From Actinoallomurus purpureus (GTDB lineage Bacteria > Actinomycetota > Actinomycetes > Streptosporangiales > Streptosporangiaceae): a stretch of DNA of 64,000 nt. Each line of letters starts with the position of its first letter. Position 1 is the first letter of the stretch. Where the stretch lies: positions 124,001 through 188,000 of the forward strand of contig NZ_JAMXMY010000017.1 of NCBI RefSeq assembly GCF_024055795.1, read 5' to 3'. Position numbers and translations under genes: made by a program. This document shows, in pieces, positions 1,763 through 12,323 of this stretch. The notes below the pieces were generated by a model, which was not told the DNA's origin, searched no databases, and was given only the letters and a program-made list of their open reading frames with translations.

Positions 1763-1886
1763 GGTACGCCGCGTGGCGTTCGGTGAGGGTCTTGTTCCAC
1801 ACCAGGCGCACACACCCGAACGTGCGGCTGAAAACCGCTGCTTGTTCGGGGCCGGGGTAGGCCCGGCACTTGTACGCCGTCCGCAT
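1763..1886 (-). pseudogene. tnpB fragment, about 41 N-terminal codons
   Basis: Starts MRTAYKCRAYPGPEQAAVFS, identical to the intact TnpB at 5422-6630 through residue 41 (ERHAAY), then continues into unrelated sequence. All RuvC catalytic residues are missing. An upstream in-frame GTG three codons earlier is also possible as start. Non-functional remnant. Confidence 0.85.
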
Positions 1887-2041
1887 GACCGACACCTTAC
1901 AACTGTCGCGCTCCCATGTAAGTCGAATGACCGTATGTCGGCGGACTCCGTTCTCAGGCCGTCCCGGCTACGCCGGGCCGCTCCTGACGGAGCCCGGATT
2001 CCTCCCCGGCCTGAAGGCCAGGGCATCCTCCGGAGGACTAG
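1763..2041 (-). mobile_element. Truncated IS200/IS605-type solo-tnpB element, left end only
   Basis: This 279-nt stretch, read on the minus strand, matches the left end of the intact element at 5267-6691 with about 95% identity by eye. Matching covers the left-end hairpin, the tnpB leader and the first codons of tnpB. It starts with CTAG directly after TTCAC (minus strand; 2042-2046), as the intact copy does. Similarity stops abruptly near 1763, in the codons after HAAY, where unrelated sequence upstream of the DUF4192 gene begins. No right end is present, so this copy cannot move as it stands. Confidence 0.85.
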
Positions 2042-2163
2042 GTGAAGCCGGTTCGACGGCGGCCGGTGCCTCCAGCCACCGCCCTCCTCGGACGCAGGGT
2101 CCTTCTGTGGACGACTCTTCCTTCCCCGACCCGAACGTCTTGGGGCCGAGACGCCGGGCCCGG

Positions 2164-5083: not shown

Positions 5084-5173
5084 TCGGCGGCCCCCGACGA
5101 CTTCACCGACGCCCTCGAACGCGACGCGGCCCGCGACAGAACCTGACTTCTCCGGCACGGCACACTGAGTCGG

Positions 5174-5266
5174 GTGGAACTACACGAGACCGTACATCTG
5201 TGGGGGCCCACGCCGGGATACCTCAACACGGCGCGCCCGTGTCGTGGTGCCGGACATCGAGTTCAC
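5174..5266 (+). pseudogene. Class-V aminotransferase remnant, 5' part (before IS)
   Basis: From GTG 5174 the frame reads VELHETVHLWGPTPGYLNTA, the usual start of class-V PLP aminotransferases of the EgtE/kynureninase-like group. It then shifts: the next recognisable family segment, VVVPDIEFT, is in another frame at 5241-5266. About 70-80 residues that normally separate the two are missing, so an internal deletion preceded or accompanied decay. The gene is then cut by the tnpB element after TTCAC (5262-5266); the rest resumes at 6692. Confidence 0.75.
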
Positions 5267-6691
5267 CTAGTCCTCCGGAGGATGCCCCGGCCTTCAGGCC
5301 GGGGAGGAATCCGGACTCCGTCAGGAGCGGACCGGCGCAGCCGGGACGGCCTGAGAACGGACTCCACCGACATTCGGTCATTCGACTTACATGGGAGTGT
5401 GACAGTTGTAAGGTGCTGGTCATGCGGACGGCGTACAAGTGCCGGGCCTACCCCGGCCCCGAACAAGCGGCGGTTTTCAGCCGCACGTTCGGGTGTGTGC
5501 GCCTGGTGTGGAACAAGACCCTCACCGAACGCCACGCCGCGTACCACCAGCGAGGCCAGAAGACCTCCTACAAGCAGACCGACGCTGCTTTGACCGGATG
5601 GAAGAAGACCGAGGACCTGGCGTTCCTCTCGGAGGTGTCCTCGGTTCCGCTGCAGCAGACGCTGCGGCACCAGCACGCGGCGTTCGCGAACTTCTTCGCC
5701 GGCCGCACCAAGTACCCGCGGTTCAAGAACCGCAACTCCCGGCAGACCGCGCACTACACCCGCTCGGCGTTCCGCATGAACAACGGCGAACTGTCCATGG
5801 CCAAAACCCGGGCACCGCTGCGGTTCGTGTGGTCCTTCGACGACGTCGAGGTCTCCACGCTCAACCCCACCATGGTCGTCATCTCCCGAGACCCGGACGG
5901 CCGCTGGTACGTCACGTTCGCCGTCGACACCGACGCCCCCGACCCCATCGATGAGGCCGGGCACGCCATCGGCGTCGATCTGGGGATCAAGGACTTCGCG
6001 GTCACCTCCGACGCCGAACGCATCGCCAACCCCCGGCATCTGGAGCGCAAGGCCCGCAACCTGGCCCGCTACCAGCGGCGGATGGCCCGCCGTGAGCGTG
6101 GGAGCATGAACCGGCGTAAGGCCAAGGCGAAGGTCGCCCGCGCCCACCGCAAGGTCCGCAACGCCCGCGCCGACTTCCTGCATCGCGTCAGCACCAACCT
6201 GATCCGCCGGGCGGATGTCATCGTCATCGAAGATCTCGCGGTCAAGAACATGGTGAAGAACCGGAAGCTGGCGCGGGTGATCTCCGATGCGGGGTGGGGG
6301 GAGTTCCGCCGGCAGCTGGAGTACAAGGCCGAACGCGCCGGGCGCACCCTCGTGGTGATCGACCGCTGGTATCCCTCGTCCAAGACCTGCTCGGTGTGCG
6401 GGTACCTGCTCGCGGAGCTGAGTCTTTCCACCCGGCACTGGACGTGTCCGGGCTGCCGCACCCGGCATGACCGGGACATCAACGCGGCCAAGAACATCGT
6501 TGCGGCTGGTCGAGCCGTAGCCGGGCACAACCCCGGTGATGCCTGTGGAGCTGGTGTCAGACGGCAAGGGTCCTCCCTTCCGCAGTCGGCGCTGAAACAG
6601 GAAACCCGCGCTGTGAGGCGCCCGGCCTAAAGGCCGGATCGGCCACACGGCCGATGGGAATCCCCTTTCTTCAGAAGGGGGAGGAAGTCAA
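5267..6691 (+). mobile_element. Solo-tnpB IS200/IS605-group element, intact
   Basis: 1425 bp. The left end begins CTAGTCCTCC directly after TTCAC and carries the perfect hairpin CCCCGGCCT/AGGCCGGGG (5285-5304). The right end is a hairpin of CCCCTT(T)CT with AGAAGGGG, carrying one bulged T as in IS608 ends, followed by GAGGAAG and the closing TCAA (6688-6691). Only tnpB is present; no tnpA Y1 transposase is seen, so movement would need TnpA in trans. The boundaries are fixed independently: removing 5267-6691 rejoins the interrupted aminotransferase frame (..DIEFT-SNLFPW..) without gain or loss. No target duplication, as expected for this group. Confidence 0.88.
5422..6630 (+). CDS. tnpB: TnpB, RNA-guided RuvC nuclease of IS200/IS605 group
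   Basis: 402 residues from ATG 5422 (MRTAYKCRAYPGPEQAAVFS); GTG 5413 is an alternative start. The N-terminal helix-turn-helix and the WED-like part come first, then the RuvC core. Catalytic Asp186 lies in GVDLGIKDF, Glu270 in VIVIEDLAVKNM and Asp352 in RHDRDINAAKNI. A CSVC...CPGC zinc ribbon sits between the last two. All three acidic residues and four cysteines are present, so it looks active. Known relatives use an RNA from their own 3' end to cut DNA next to a motif equal to the insertion target. That restores the element at its old site after excision. The C-terminal tail past the zinc ribbon is long and Gly/Arg-rich, overlapping the likely guide RNA. Confidence 0.92.
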   Translation: MRTAYKCRAYPGPEQAAVFSRTFGCVRLVWNKTLTERHAAYHQRGQKTSYKQTDAALTGWKKTEDLAFLSEVSSVPLQQTLRHQHAAFANFFAGRTKYPRFKNRNSRQTAHYTRSAFRMNNGELSMAKTRAPLRFVWSFDDVEVSTLNPTMVVISRDPDGRWYVTFAVDTDAPDPIDEAGHAIGVDLGIKDFAVTSDAERIANPRHLERKARNLARYQRRMARRERGSMNRRKAKAKVARAHRKVRNARADFLHRVSTNLIRRADVIVIEDLAVKNMVKNRKLARVISDAGWGEFRRQLEYKAERAGRTLVVIDRWYPSSKTCSVCGYLLAELSLSTRHWTCPGCRTRHDRDINAAKNIVAAGRAVAGHNPGDACGAGVRRQGSSLPQSALKQETRAVRRPA

Positions 6692-6711
6692 CTCCAACCT
6701 CTTCCCCTGGC
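6540..6711 (+). ncRNA. Predicted omega (right-end) RNA with guide
   Basis: In studied TnpB systems the guide RNA covers the 3' end of tnpB and the right end of the element and runs 16-20 nt into the flank. Here that predicts a scaffold ending at TCAA (6688-6691) and a guide starting at 6692, CTCCAACCTCTTCCCCTGGC. Paired stems are visible (CGGCCTAAAGGCCG and GGCCACACGGCC near 6623-6655, then the bulged right-end hairpin). The 5' boundary is a guess; the 3' rule is by analogy. Confidence 0.45.
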
Positions 6712-7025
6712 TGGTCCAGGACCTCGACGTACGCACGGTGCCGCTCGAGAAGGTCGCGGACGCCGTCGACGGCCGTACGGCGCTCGTGGCCTTCAGCGTG
6801 GTGCAGTCGGCCACCGGGGAGATCGCGCTGGCCGACCGGTTCCTGGCGGGCCTGGGCCTGCCGCCCACGGGCAGCGCGATCGTGAGCGTCGACGTGCCCG
6901 GAGCCGCCGAGCGGCTCGCGGCAGCGGGAGTGCGCGCCGCCGTACGGGACGGGCGGCTGCGGGCGGCGTTCCACCTGTACACGACGGACGCCGACGTCGA
7001 CCTGGCGCTGAACGCGCTCACCTGA
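6692..7025 (+). pseudogene. Class-V aminotransferase remnant, 3' part (after IS)
   Basis: Continues the frame cut by the element: SNLFPWLVQDLDVRTVPLEK, then VVQSATGEIA, then a jump to RFLAGLGLPPTGSAIVSVDV and the normal C-terminus HLYTTDADVDLALNALT. Between GEIA and RFLAG the family normally has about 150 residues, including the PLP-binding lysine; these are deleted in frame. The product could not bind PLP, even without the IS. The frame can be read from an ATG inside the element (6654), giving 123 residues, but I see no reason to think it is made. Confidence 0.75.
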
Positions 7026-8922: not shown

Positions 8923-11010
8923 TCAGTCCGCGGTGTCGAGCCGGCGCAGCGCCGCCTTGACGGTCGCGGAGTCGAACGTCGTCCAGAACGGCGGCAGCGA
9001 CGACCGCAGGAAGGTGCCGTAGCGCGCGGTCGCCAGCCGCGGGTCCAGGATGGCGACGACGCCGCGGTCGGTCATCGACCGCAGCAGGCGTCCCGCGCCC
9101 TGCGCGAGCAGCAGCGCGGCGTGGGTCGCGGCGACGGCCATGAAGCCGTTCCCGCCGTGCGCGGCGACGGCGCGCTGCCGGGCCGAGGACAGCGGGTCGT
9201 CGGGGCGCGGGAACGGGATGCGGTCGATGACGACCAGCCGCAACGACGGACCGGGCACGTCGACGCCCTGCCAGAGGGACAGCGTGCCGAACAGGCAGGT
9301 CGCCTCGTCGTCGGTGAACTGCTTGATGAGCTGCGACGTGGAGTCGTCCCCCTGGCACAGCAGCGGATGCGTGAGGCGGCCGCGCAGTTCCTCGGCCGCC
9401 TGCTTGGCGGCCCGCATGGAGGAGAACAGGCCGAGCGTGCGGCCCCCGGCGGCCTCGATCAGCTCGGTCAGCTCGGTGAGGTACGCCTCGGGCAGGCCGT
9501 CGCGGCCCGGCTGCGGGAGCTGCCGCGCGATGTACAGGATGCCGGTGCGGGCGTGGTCGAACGGCGAGCCGACGTCCAGCCCCGACCACCGCAGCGGCCG
9601 CTCCGCCGCGTCCTTCTTCGCCGGCTCGTCGCCCTCGGGCGCCGCCGGCGCCTCCGCCACCCCCTCCGGTGCCGCGCCGAGCGGCGGCAGGCCCCACTGC
9701 CGGGCCAGCGGCTCGAACGATCCGCCCAGCGACAGGGTGGCCGAGGTCAGCACGGTCGTACGGCGGCCGAACAGCCGCTCGCGGAGCAGGCCGCCGACGC
9801 CCAGCGGGGCCACCCGGAGCGCGGTGGGCCGCCGGGAGTCCTCGGTGAAGGGACGGTCCAGCCAGACGACGTCGTGCCGGGAGGCCAGATCGGCCTCGAA
9901 CGTCTCCAGGAGCCGCCCGGCCGTGTCGTGGATCTCCTCCAGGGCCGTGAGGGCGGCCCGGGCCGCGCCGAGCCGCTCCGCGTCGTCCTCCGCGGTCTTC
10001 AGCGTGGTGCGCAGGGCGGTCGTGCAGGCGTACGCGGCGTTCCGGACCGACAGGAGGATCACGCCGAGGGCCTGCGGGAGGACGTCCATGCGGCCCGCCG
10101 GGGTGTCGGCCAGGAGGGGCTGCAGCGCCTCGCCGGCCTCCTTGAGCCGGTCGGCGAGGTCCTCCTCGATGAGGCGGCCGCAGCGCCGCGCGGCGAACTC
10201 CACGGCCGACACGGACAGCTCCGCGGTCGCCACGGACGTCACCCGGTCCACGAGCTCGTGCGCCTCATCGATGATCACGACGTCGTGCTCGGGCAGGACC
10301 TGGAACTCCTCGAGCGCGTCGATGGCCAGCAGGGCGTGGTTGGTGACGACGACGTCGGCCTCTCCCGACTTGTCGCGGGCACGCTCGGCGAAGCACTCGG
10401 TGCCGAAGGGGCAGCGCTGTGCCCCCAGGCACTCACGGGCGCTCACCGCGACCTGGCGCCAGGCCTGCTCGGGCACCCCCGGGACGAGCTCGTCCCGGTC
10501 GCCGGTCTCCGTCGTCTCGGCCCACTCGTGGATGCGCTGCACCTGCCGGCCGGTGGCGGAGACGGACTGGGCGTCGAAGAGGATCTCGTCGGGGTCGTCG
10601 GGCTCGTCCACCTGCATCCGGTGCAGGCACAGGTAGTTGCGCCGCCCCTTGAGGATCGCGAACACCGGCGCGCGGCCGAGCAGCGGTGTCAGCGACTCGG
10701 CGAGACGCGGCAGGTCGCGCTCGATGAGCTGGCGCTGCAGTGCGATCGTCGCGGTGGAGACGACGACACAGGCGTTTTCGGCGACGGCGTGGCGGACGGC
10801 GGGGACGAGGTAGGCCAGGGACTTTCCGGTGCCGGTGCCCGCCTGAACGGCGAGGTGCTCCCCCGACTCGATCGTGTGGGCGACCGCTTCGGCCATCTTG
10901 ACCTGGCCGGGCCGTTCGGCGCCGCCGACCCCGCCGACCGCGGCGGCGAGAAGGGGCCCGACGTCGGGAACGTCGGTCTTTTCAGAGGAGTCGAGGAGGT
11001 CGTCGGCCAC
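8923..11010 (-). CDS. dinG: DinG/XPD-like ATP-dependent DNA helicase, Fe-S type
   Basis: 695 residues from GTG 11010 (VADDLLDSSEKTDVPDVGPL); the frame is open further up but without family features. Walker A AGTGTGKSLAY at about 57-67, STATIALQRQL (motif Ia), four cysteines in NYLCLHRM and ECLGAQRCPFGTECF (the Fe-S cluster site of the family), VIIDEAHELVD as motif II, and C-terminal TLSLWQGVDVPG and QGAGRLLRS (motifs V and VI). Such helicases unwind DNA 5'-3' and clear R-loops or structured DNA. An aminotransferase gene ends 101 nt upstream on the same strand; no functional tie is evident. Confidence 0.88.
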   Translation of the reverse strand: MADDLLDSSEKTDVPDVGPLLAAAVGGVGGAERPGQVKMAEAVAHTIESGEHLAVQAGTGTGKSLAYLVPAVRHAVAENACVVVSTATIALQRQLIERDLPRLAESLTPLLGRAPVFAILKGRRNYLCLHRMQVDEPDDPDEILFDAQSVSATGRQVQRIHEWAETTETGDRDELVPGVPEQAWRQVAVSARECLGAQRCPFGTECFAERARDKSGEADVVVTNHALLAIDALEEFQVLPEHDVVIIDEAHELVDRVTSVATAELSVSAVEFAARRCGRLIEEDLADRLKEAGEALQPLLADTPAGRMDVLPQALGVILLSVRNAAYACTTALRTTLKTAEDDAERLGAARAALTALEEIHDTAGRLLETFEADLASRHDVVWLDRPFTEDSRRPTALRVAPLGVGGLLRERLFGRRTTVLTSATLSLGGSFEPLARQWGLPPLGAAPEGVAEAPAAPEGDEPAKKDAAERPLRWSGLDVGSPFDHARTGILYIARQLPQPGRDGLPEAYLTELTELIEAAGGRTLGLFSSMRAAKQAAEELRGRLTHPLLCQGDDSTSQLIKQFTDDEATCLFGTLSLWQGVDVPGPSLRLVVIDRIPFPRPDDPLSSARQRAVAAHGGNGFMAVAATHAALLLAQGAGRLLRSMTDRGVVAILDPRLATARYGTFLRSSLPPFWTTFDSATVKAALRRLDTAD

Positions 11011-11111
11011 CCGGTCAACGCTACCGGGCGGCCCGGACCGTTCGCCGCCACAGCCACGCTTTCCCCCGAGTGTGCCCGGACGGCCCGCGGTGCGGCCGCG
11101 GGCGCGGGCGA

Positions 11112-12323
11112 TCAGGCGCGGCGGGCGGCCAGGAACTCCCCCAGCCTGCCGATCGCCTCTTCTAGGTCGTCGGCGTGCTGCAGCGTGACGATCCGCAGGT
11201 GGTCGGTCGACGGCCAGTTGAAACCGGTGCCCTGCACGACGAGGATCTGCCGGCTCTCCAGCAGGTCCAGCACGAAGCGCTGGTCGTCGTCGATGGGATA
11301 GACCTCCGGGTCCAGGCGCGGGAAGACGTACAGCGCGCCGGACGGCTTCGCGCAGCTGACGCCCGGGATCTCGTTGAGGAGCCGCCAGGCGCGGTCGCGC
11401 TGCTCGCGCAGCCGGCCGCCCGGCAGGACGAGGTCGTTGATGCTCTGGTGGCCTCCGAGCGCGGCCTGGATGGCGTGCTGGCCCGGCACATTGGGGCACA
11501 GCCGCATGTTGGCCAGCATGTCCAGGCCCTCGATGTAGGACTCCGCGTGCTCCTTCGGCCCGGAGACGACCATCCAGCCGGACCGGAAGCCGCAGACGCG
11601 GTACGCCTTGGACAGGCCGGAGAAGGTGAGGGACAGCACGTCCGGGGCGAGCGGCGCGATCGAGACGTGCTCGGCGCCGTCGTACAGGATCCGATCGTAG
11701 ATCTCGTCGGCGAGGATCAGCAGCCCCCGCCGCCGGGCCAGCTCGGCCACGCCCTGGAGGAGCTCACGGGAGTACACGGCGCCGGTCGGGTTGTTCGGAT
11801 TGATGATCACGATGGCCTTGGTGGCCGGGGTGATCTTCGCCTCGATGTCCGCGAGGTCGGGCATCCAGCCCTGGGTCTCGTCGCAGAGGTAGTGCACCGG
11901 CGTGCCGCCGCCGAGGGACACCGCCGCCGTCCACAGCGGGTAGTCCGGGGCCGGGATCAGCACCTCGTCCCCGTTGTTGAGCAGCGCCTGCAGGGCCATG
12001 ACGATCAGCTCCGACACGCCGTTGCCGAGGTAGACGTCCTCGACGCCGACCCCGGGGAAGCCCCGCTGCTCGTAGTGCTGCACCACCGCCCGGCGGGCGG
12101 ACAGGATGCCCTTGGAATCGCTGTAACCGTGGGCCACCGGCAGGTTGCGGATGACGTCCTGGAGGATCTCGTCCGGGGCCTCGAAGCCGAACGTCGCGGG
12201 GTTGCCGATGTGCAGCTTGAGGATCTGGTGTCCCTCGGCCTCCAGCTGCATGGCCCGCTTCAGGACCGGGCCCCGGATGTCGTAGAGGACGTTGGCGAGC
12301 TTGTCCGACTGGCTGACCTGCAT
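11112..12323 (-). CDS. AlaA-type PLP-dependent aminotransferase
   Basis: 403 residues, the usual length of fold-type I class-I aminotransferases. The start MQVSQSDKLANVLYDIRGPV matches AlaA-like alanine transaminases. Visible sites: NGVSELIVMALQALL, IIINPNNPTGAVYSRELL (Asn for PLP), LADEIYDRILYDG (Asp and Tyr for the cofactor), LTFSGLSKAYRVCGFRSGW with the Schiff-base Lys239, and LRIVTLQHADDL with the carboxylate-binding Arg near the end. Expected reaction: alanine and 2-oxoglutarate to pyruvate and glutamate; close relatives accept other amino acids. The first gene of its strand run, it may be read on into the helicase gene. Confidence 0.9.
   Translation of the reverse strand: MQVSQSDKLANVLYDIRGPVLKRAMQLEAEGHQILKLHIGNPATFGFEAPDEILQDVIRNLPVAHGYSDSKGILSARRAVVQHYEQRGFPGVGVEDVYLGNGVSELIVMALQALLNNGDEVLIPAPDYPLWTAAVSLGGGTPVHYLCDETQGWMPDLADIEAKITPATKAIVIINPNNPTGAVYSRELLQGVAELARRRGLLILADEIYDRILYDGAEHVSIAPLAPDVLSLTFSGLSKAYRVCGFRSGWMVVSGPKEHAESYIEGLDMLANMRLCPNVPGQHAIQAALGGHQSINDLVLPGGRLREQRDRAWRLLNEIPGVSCAKPSGALYVFPRLDPEVYPIDDDQRFVLDLLESRQILVVQGTGFNWPSTDHLRIVTLQHADDLEEAIGRLGEFLAARRA

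What the first reader, a model, noticed from the sequence alone, without database searches (positions are those of the whole stretch)
5262..6711. Intact solo-tnpB element whose exact excision restores the broken reading frame
Seen: deleting 5267-6691 joins ..GACATCGAGTTCAC to CTCCAACCTC.., and the class-V aminotransferase text runs through as VVVPDIEFT-SNLFPWLVQ. This fixes both ends without help from databases. The target is TTCAC, the right end closes with TCAA and has a hairpin with a bulged T, and there is no duplication. TnpB has D186, E270, D352 and the zinc ribbon. Known: TnpB of such elements is an RNA-guided nuclease whose TAM equals the target. Inference: TAM TTCAC, guide CTCCAACCTCTTCCCCTGGC.
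Basis: partly seen in the sequence, partly recalled or inferred. Interest (0 to 1): 0.75.

Follow-up and report, generated by a model that had tools for sequence, protein, structure and literature searches.

The report
TnpB-only jumping gene with guide RNA
This is an ordinary but unusually well-documented bacterial jumping element that carries only an RNA-guided DNA-cutting enzyme; its exact insertion point is confirmed by the empty site in a related bacterium, and its sister copies in the genome look like patchworks of one another.

Summary
A 1,425-bp tnpB-only element of the IS200/IS605 superfamily (IS1341-type organisation) lies at 5267-6691, directly 3' of TTCAC. At least 13 full copies lie in the genome in unrelated flanks; TTCAC is in register at 19 of 20 left ends found, and 15 of 15 right ends (13 full, two contig-edge copies) finish GGAAGTCAA. 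A congener has the exact empty site GAGTTCAC|CTCCAACCTCTTCCCC. TnpB is intact in 12 of 13 copies, with all three catalytic acids, and the 3' end carries a covarying reRNA scaffold. TAM TTCAC and guide CTCCAACCTCTTCCCCTGGC are well-supported inferences, not assayed.

Corrections: excision restores only the local frame, because the aminotransferase gene also carries deletions of about 215 and 390 bp against congeners. The locus alone leaves a 2-bp ambiguity. The bulged T is not predicted.

Unexpected: the 13 copies are mosaics. Linkage falls to background within about 60 bp, yet the protein is under purifying selection (dN/dS about 0.2). Of eight genomes of the genus only this one has a full-length Y1 TnpA hit, and its HUH motif reads QVH. 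A new member of a known kind; the mosaic is the part worth following.

The parts
5262..5266 (+). TTCAC, target / left cleavage site, probable TAM
   Evidence: in register at 19 of 20 left ends found in the genome; present at the uninterrupted site of five congeners
5267..6691 (+). the element, 1,425 bp
   Evidence: 13 full copies with the same ends and unrelated flanks; empty site in G007
5285..5304 (+). left-end hairpin, 8-bp stem with TTCA loop, 13 nt plus GGATG 3' of TTCAC; outer stem 5274-5279/5310-5315
   Evidence: DNA fold, z -2.63; an NTCAC motif at the same 13-nt spacing in 8 of 22 relatives by script
5422..6630 (+). tnpB, 402 aa, RNA-guided nuclease family
   Evidence: Pfam OrfB_IS605, Cas12f1-like_TNB, HTH_OrfB_IS605; NCBIfam guided_TnpB 349 bits, cut-off 100 (IS200_TnpB 373.7 bits is below its own cut-off of 425); solved TnpB 8bf8 E 8.8e-72
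6542..6601 (+). reRNA scaffold core, inside the 3' end of tnpB
   Evidence: covariation over 24 sequences: 94.4% of cells paired, 18 of 32 pairs with a change on both sides, 0 of 500 shuffles as high (counts are for the whole predicted structure)
6661..6682 (+). right-end hairpin
   Evidence: DNA fold, z -2.75, 9 bp without bulge
6688..6691 (+). TCAA, right cleavage motif
   Evidence: last four bases of 13 of 13 full copies and of both contig-edge copies
6692..6711 (+). inferred guide CTCCAACCTCTTCCCCTGGC (16-20 nt of 3' flank)
   Evidence: flank of the right end; different in each of the 13 copies. Guide role by analogy with ISDra2 (PMC8612924, passages)
5153..5266 (+). 5' remains of the host class-V aminotransferase gene; about 215 bp missing near 5232-5236
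   Evidence: blastn and tblastn against congeners; the G006 protein is Aminotran_5
6692..7025 (+). 3' remains of the same gene; about 390 bp missing near 6823-6835
   Evidence: the remaining 110 aa alone give no Pfam hit
1763..2046 (-). left-end-only relic of the same family (TTCAC plus 279 bp of element)
   Evidence: 95% identity, matches only query 1-284

Best explanation
A tnpB-only IS200/IS605-superfamily transposon (IS1341-type) of an Actinoallomurus species. A Y1 TnpA acting in trans excised and inserted its single strand 3' of TTCAC, without duplication. The transcript of the 3' end of tnpB plus the right end is processed to an reRNA whose last 16-20 nt are the flank CTCCAACCTCTTCCCCTGGC. 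TnpB with this RNA cuts the re-formed empty site TTCAC-CTCCAACC..., so that repair from a sister copy puts the element back. Shown: ends, target, absence of duplication, empty site, intact nuclease, conserved RNA fold, purifying selection. Inferred: peel-and-paste movement, TAM identity, guide use, homing by repair. The element sits in a gene that is dead for other reasons too.
For: 13 full copies with the same end structure; TTCAC in register at 19 of 20 left ends and GGAAGTCAA at 15 of 15 right ends of full and contig-edge copies; exact empty site in G007 and TTCAC at the uninterrupted site of four further congeners; Pfam and NCBIfam hits and solved TnpB relatives; 12 of 13 ORFs intact with D186/E270/D352 and four zinc-ribbon Cys; dN/dS mean 0.20 over 66 pairs and pN/pS 0.22 for private variants against 0.19 for shared ones; reRNA covariation; weak HgcC RNA hit over the right end, 27.7 bits, below its cut-off of 50.
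Against: No tnpA in the element, and no TnpA with matching ends found. The only full-length Y1 TnpA hit of the genome (L027, another TnpB element) reads PDQVH where the two solved relatives shown and L173 read DHIH, so mobility today is doubtful. In other genera the base before TCAC varies (T, G, A), so the TAM may be TCAC. A TnpB that does not cut beside TTCAC, its right-end motif, is known (PMC11043419, passages). No RNA or cleavage data.
Confidence: 0.86

Rival explanations
1. Stranded family: the element is real but can no longer move, because no competent TnpA is left in this genome; TnpB persists only by its own RNA-guided retention.
For: Of eight genomes of the genus (own plus seven) only this one has more than a fragment of Y1 TnpA: one full-length hit with QVH in place of HUH and two hits that lack the N-terminal third of the profile. 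Copies are 87-96% alike, so no recent burst. TnpB still shows dN/dS 0.20.
Against: The assembly is a 52-contig draft (97.9% complete), so a TnpA may be missing. The family multiplied in this lineage (13 full copies against one 87% full-length copy in G003 and diverged partial matches elsewhere), which needed a transposase at some time.
Confidence: 0.4
2. TnpB has been taken over as an RNA-guided repressor or another host function (TldR-like) and no longer cuts.
For: Long-lived intact copies under purifying selection.
Against: All three catalytic acids and the zinc ribbon are kept in 12 of 12 intact copies, each copy has its own flank as guide, and the copies keep both ends.
Confidence: 0.05
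3. The element is a decayed IS605 that lost tnpA.
For: Decayed tnpA is reported in Halanaerobium (PMC7290912, passages), and PMC9956272 calls it unclear whether IS1341 elements are autonomous or decay copies (passages).
Against: Only 155 bp separate the left end from the tnpB ATG in this copy (140-166 in the 13); tblastn with the L027 TnpA finds nothing in any of the 13 copies.
Confidence: 0.08

Closest known systems
ISDra2 / ISDra2 TnpB (IS200/IS605, Deinococcus; PMC8612924, passages seen)
   Same: TnpB family by sequence, insertion 3' of a pentanucleotide without duplication, reRNA position at the 3' end of tnpB plus right end with flank as guide
   Different: no tnpA; target TTCAC, not TTGAT; TAM and guide not tested here
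IS1341 group (tnpB-only elements; PMC9956272, passages seen)
   Same: single tnpB between left and right ends, 1.4 kb, no tnpA remnant
   Different: that paper reports averages of about one to three copies of IS1341 per genome in its species; here 13 full copies in one genome
IS608 (Helicobacter; target TTAC from PMC8612924; TCAA right cleavage site recalled, from no call)
   Same: hairpin ends and TCAA right cleavage site
   Different: has its own tnpA; other target
Halanaerobium hydrogeniformans IS200/IS605 family (PMC7290912, passages seen)
   Same: multi-copy tnpB elements whose trees suggested recombination between copies
   Different: there inferred from shared inserts and poor branch support; here short-range linkage decay is measured

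Membership tests
IS200/IS605 superfamily, IS1341-type | OrfB/TnpB with RuvC and zinc ribbon | tested here: met
IS200/IS605 superfamily, IS1341-type | left and right ends with subterminal hairpins | tested here: met
IS200/IS605 superfamily, IS1341-type | insertion 3' of a fixed short target, no duplication | tested here: met
   19 of 20 left ends in the genome and empty sites
IS200/IS605 superfamily, IS1341-type | no transposase gene nor its remnant | tested here: met
IS200/IS605 superfamily, IS1341-type | mobilisation by Y1 TnpA through a single-strand circle | not testable with these tools
   only circumstantial: TnpA hits in this genome, one fragment among seven congeners
RNA-guided nuclease TnpB (OMEGA) | three RuvC acids | tested here: met
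   12 of 12 intact copies
RNA-guided nuclease TnpB (OMEGA) | conserved reRNA scaffold at the tnpB 3' end and right end | tested here: met
   structure only, expression not tested
RNA-guided nuclease TnpB (OMEGA) | guide-directed, TAM-dependent cleavage | not testable with these tools
   needs a bench assay
TldR-like repressor | loss of RuvC acids (recalled) | tested here: not met

The most novel reading that the evidence does not exclude
The copies of this TnpB family exchange very short tracts with each other, and they do so because the transposition cycle itself supplies homologous single strands: an excised single-stranded element circle anneals to a resident copy, and patchy repair of the heteroduplex shuffles variants every few tens of bases while selection keeps TnpB active. 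The nuclease family would then evolve as one recombining pool inside one genome. A linked reading is that some left-end-only relics are failed repair after TnpB cleavage: at L020 the 16-18 nt just 3' of TTCAC are missing, which is where TnpB would be expected to cut.
Probability: 0.12. Interest if true: 0.65.

Novelty: new member of a known kind. Interest (0 to 1): 0.36.

Why it matters
The element gives a fully bounded TnpB system with a natural empty site and 13 natural guides in one genome, so TAM and guide rules can be tested directly. It may also serve as a small nuclease from a GC-rich actinomycete. The mosaic copies, if general, would help explain how tnpB-only elements stay intact for long times with no transposase of their own, an open question about the IS1341 group (PMC9956272, passages).

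Tried and rejected
Left-end-only relics as a directional signature: five lie inside contigs (L016, L019-L022), but one diverged right-end-only piece also exists (L061), so 5 to 1 is not significant and I dropped the claim. Four partial copies at contig ends (L014, L015, L017, L018) were not counted as relics. Breakpoints of the relics: L020 16-18 nt, L019 about 495 nt beyond TTCAC; L016, L021 and L022 gave no usable alignment. So one of two readable cases fits TnpB cleavage, which is weak.

Its hit is 88.6% identical to a second aminotransferase gene of the own genome on contig C15 and only 75-79% to the window gene, so it is not the orthologous site; its lack of TTCAC says nothing.

A control for the mosaic on another insertion sequence of the same genome failed: the gene tried is single-copy. 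The five Actinomadura sp. CNU-125 copies show the same trend with less power (one 628-bp partial copy, L217, was left out). The no-recombination simulations fit imperfectly: they have more variable sites (398 against 331) and singletons (156 against 105) and fewer biallelic informative sites (96 against 181) than the data.

Assembly chimeras as the source of the mosaic: tracts shorter than about 60 bp lie within single reads or k-mers of usual assemblers (recalled), but the reads are not held, so this is not excluded by data.

Antisense RNA: Rfam Sernc389 matches the opposite strand of tnpB at 161.6 bits, cut-off 74; this may simply reflect tnpB homology and was not pursued.

Papers: searches for TnpB with TTCAC, gene conversion, actinobacteria, HgcC (none), IS605 ends, peel-and-paste, Streptomyces and IS605 with mosaic. 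I saw listings (titles and starts of abstracts; capped, e.g. 20 of 117) and no title naming this family; subscription papers are not held.

Full report
OBSERVATION. A DNA search of the own genome (40 of 189 first-look candidates were scored, so counts are lower bounds) finds 13 full-length copies of 1,408-1,433 bp. Taking full copies (13), contig-edge copies (2) and relics (5) together there are 20 left ends: 19 begin in register with TTCAC; in L005 the TTCAC stands 11 bp further out because of an 11-bp insertion. The pattern search lists 19 left ends and misses L004, which one search shows. Of the right ends, 15 of 15 in full and contig-edge copies end GGAAGTCAA; one search adds one diverged right-end-only piece (L061) and the right end of another TnpB gene (L063). 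The 20 bases that follow differ in each of the 13 full copies. Because CT follows TTCAC both in the element and in this flank, this locus alone leaves two bases undecided; the other copies place them in the element.

EMPTY SITE. Seven other genomes of the genus are held; six have a strong hit to the interrupted gene. G007 reads GAGTTCACCTCCAACCTCTTCCCCTGGC, identical to the joined flanks across the junction; G002, G001, G005 and G006 keep TTCAC with 1-3 changes in the 23-nt pattern. G003 lacks TTCAC (6 changes), but its gene is 88.6% identical to a second copy on own contig C15 against 75-79% to the window gene, so it is a paralogue and not a test. G004 gave only a weak hit. Orthology of the five rests on similarity (about 80-90%); gene order was not compared. 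The predicted junction is met and there is no target duplication.

HOST GENE. The G006 protein is a class-V aminotransferase (PF00266, 85 bits). Against G007 the window gene lacks about 215 bp near 5232-5236, which shifts the frame, and about 390 bp near 6823-6835, in frame, where some 13 bp match both sides of the gap (sizes are my arithmetic on the alignments, 393 against G007). The second deletion removes the segment with YKWL, which should hold the PLP lysine (recalled). Excision would therefore restore only the frame across the junction. Whether the deletions came before or after the insertion is not known.

PROTEIN. tnpB (5422-6630, 402 aa) hits OrfB_IS605, Cas12f1-like TNB and HTH_OrfB_IS605, guided_TnpB (349 bits, cut-off 100), an AI-designed nuclease 9yyg (E 3.9e-86) and solved TnpB 8bf8 (E 8.8e-72). 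Twelve of 13 copies are full-length (395-403 aa), each with D186, E270, D352 and the four zinc-ribbon cysteines; L003 stops at 228 aa. Mean dN/dS over the 66 pairs of intact copies is 0.20, range 0.11-0.35. Private variants are no less constrained than shared ones (pN/pS 0.22 against 0.19, Fisher P 0.61, 12 copies, 394 codons), as expected if each copy has been kept functional, though conversion from unsampled copies would look the same.

RNA. Twenty-four 3' ends (this copy, L013 and 22 of the 80 relatives; the other 11 own full copies were left out as near-duplicates) were aligned. The consensus fold has 94.4% of cells paired, 18 of 32 pairs with changes on both sides and a covariation score of 0.448 against 0.211 in shuffles; 0 of 500 shuffles reach any of the five measures and slid versions score 0.06-0.12 (the structure was derived from the same alignment, which favours it). 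The core (6542-6601) lies inside the tnpB reading frame. The strand 6522-6711 folds with z -2.5. Rfam has no match above cut-off on this strand; HgcC scores 27.7 bits against 50.

TARGET IN RELATIVES. A script found an NTCAC motif exactly 13 nt before the left-end hairpin motif in 8 of 22 relatives (TTCAC in L094, L098, L106, L108 and L109; GTCAC in L101 and L114; ATCAC in L102); L111 (GTCAC) fits by eye, and L103 has GTCAT at that spacing. The rest were not resolved by the script. So TTCAC is the rule in this genome, but TCAC may be the core.

MOBILITY. The element has no tnpA and no detectable remnant. In this genome Y1_Tnp hits three places: one full-length (L027, in a different tnpA-tnpB element) and two lacking the N-terminal part. 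Of the seven congeners only G002 has a hit, a 41-position fragment just over cut-off, and the only full-length element copy among them is in G003 (87%). So expansion and TnpA coincide in one of eight genomes, which is suggestive only. The L027 TnpA reads PDQVH where the two solved relatives aligned (of eight hits) and L173 read DHIH; loss of the first His of HUH should weaken metal binding (recalled).

TAXON. L094, Actinoallomurus soli WRP6H-15, lies on a 510,208-bp contig; G003:C44, a same-genus genome, is also 510,208 bp with the element at the same place. The window is therefore from an Actinoallomurus species (Thermomonosporaceae).

MOSAIC COPIES. Among the 13 copies (87-96% identical) 181 biallelic informative sites have r2 0.29 at 1-9 bp, 0.17 at 10-30 bp, 0.11 at 30-60 bp and 0.10 at 60-200 bp, against 0.097 in permutations (2,000 per distance class; 0, 0 and 12 of 2,000 reach the first three; without L003 and L013 the 30-60 bp class is no longer raised). 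Incompatibility over all pairs is 0.591 against 0.380 (sd 0.030, maximum 0.468) in 100 simulations without recombination on the ML tree; those simulations fit the site counts only roughly. Trees of four segments reject one another (AU P at most 0.011 in each of 12 cross-comparisons; iqtree warned that 5,000 resamplings are few). Five Actinomadura sp. CNU-125 copies show the same trend (incompatibility 0.28 at 1-9 bp and 0.44 at 10-30 bp against 0.54 expected; 0 and 17 of 1,000 permutations). Recombination between tnpB copies was suggested before in Halanaerobium (PMC7290912, passages). I hold recombination as shown statistically, its mechanism as open. A control on another insertion sequence was not obtained, and reads are not available to exclude assembly errors directly.

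RELICS. Five left-end-only pieces lie inside contigs, one of them in the window at 1763-2046. At L020 the congener G003 reads TTCAC followed by 18 nt that are missing beside the relic; a shared CA makes the loss 16-18 nt (G007 and G004 lack TTCAC there). ISDra2 TnpB makes a staggered cut some 15-21 nt from the TAM (15 recalled; one search gives 20-21 bp in a legend and the stagger). At L019 about 495 nt are missing. Three were unreadable.

VERDICT. A correctly delimited, ordinary kind of element with a good functional prediction, plus one surprising side observation. Novelty: new member of a known kind.

Noticed in passing
L001-L013 (13 full copies in G000): The copies are mosaics: linkage between variant sites falls to background within about 60 bp, and four segment trees reject each other.
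   Followed up: partly
L027 (G000:C15:76801-80154): The only full-length Y1 TnpA hit of the genome has QVH in place of the HUH motif; it sits with a different TnpB.
   Followed up: partly
window 1763-2046 (-), and L019-L022: Left-end-only relics of the family; at L020 the loss ends 16-18 nt 3' of TTCAC, near the expected TnpB cut.
   Followed up: partly
window 5609-6203 (-): Rfam antisense RNA Sernc389 (Saccharopolyspora) matches the strand opposite tnpB at 161.6 bits.
   Followed up: no
L202, L205, L208, L211, L214 (Actinomadura sp. CNU-125): A second multi-copy family of the same kind, 87-93% alike, with the same mosaic trend.
   Followed up: partly
L005, element start: An 11-bp insertion between TTCAC and the left end in an otherwise full-length copy.
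   Followed up: no
window 6630-6704 (+): Weak HgcC RNA family match (27.7 bits, cut-off 50) over the right end, which suggests that HgcC may be a related reRNA.
   Followed up: no
G000:C15 about 9113-11367 (L079, L076): A second aminotransferase gene of the genome is also split, by about 2.25 kb that does not match this element.
   Followed up: no
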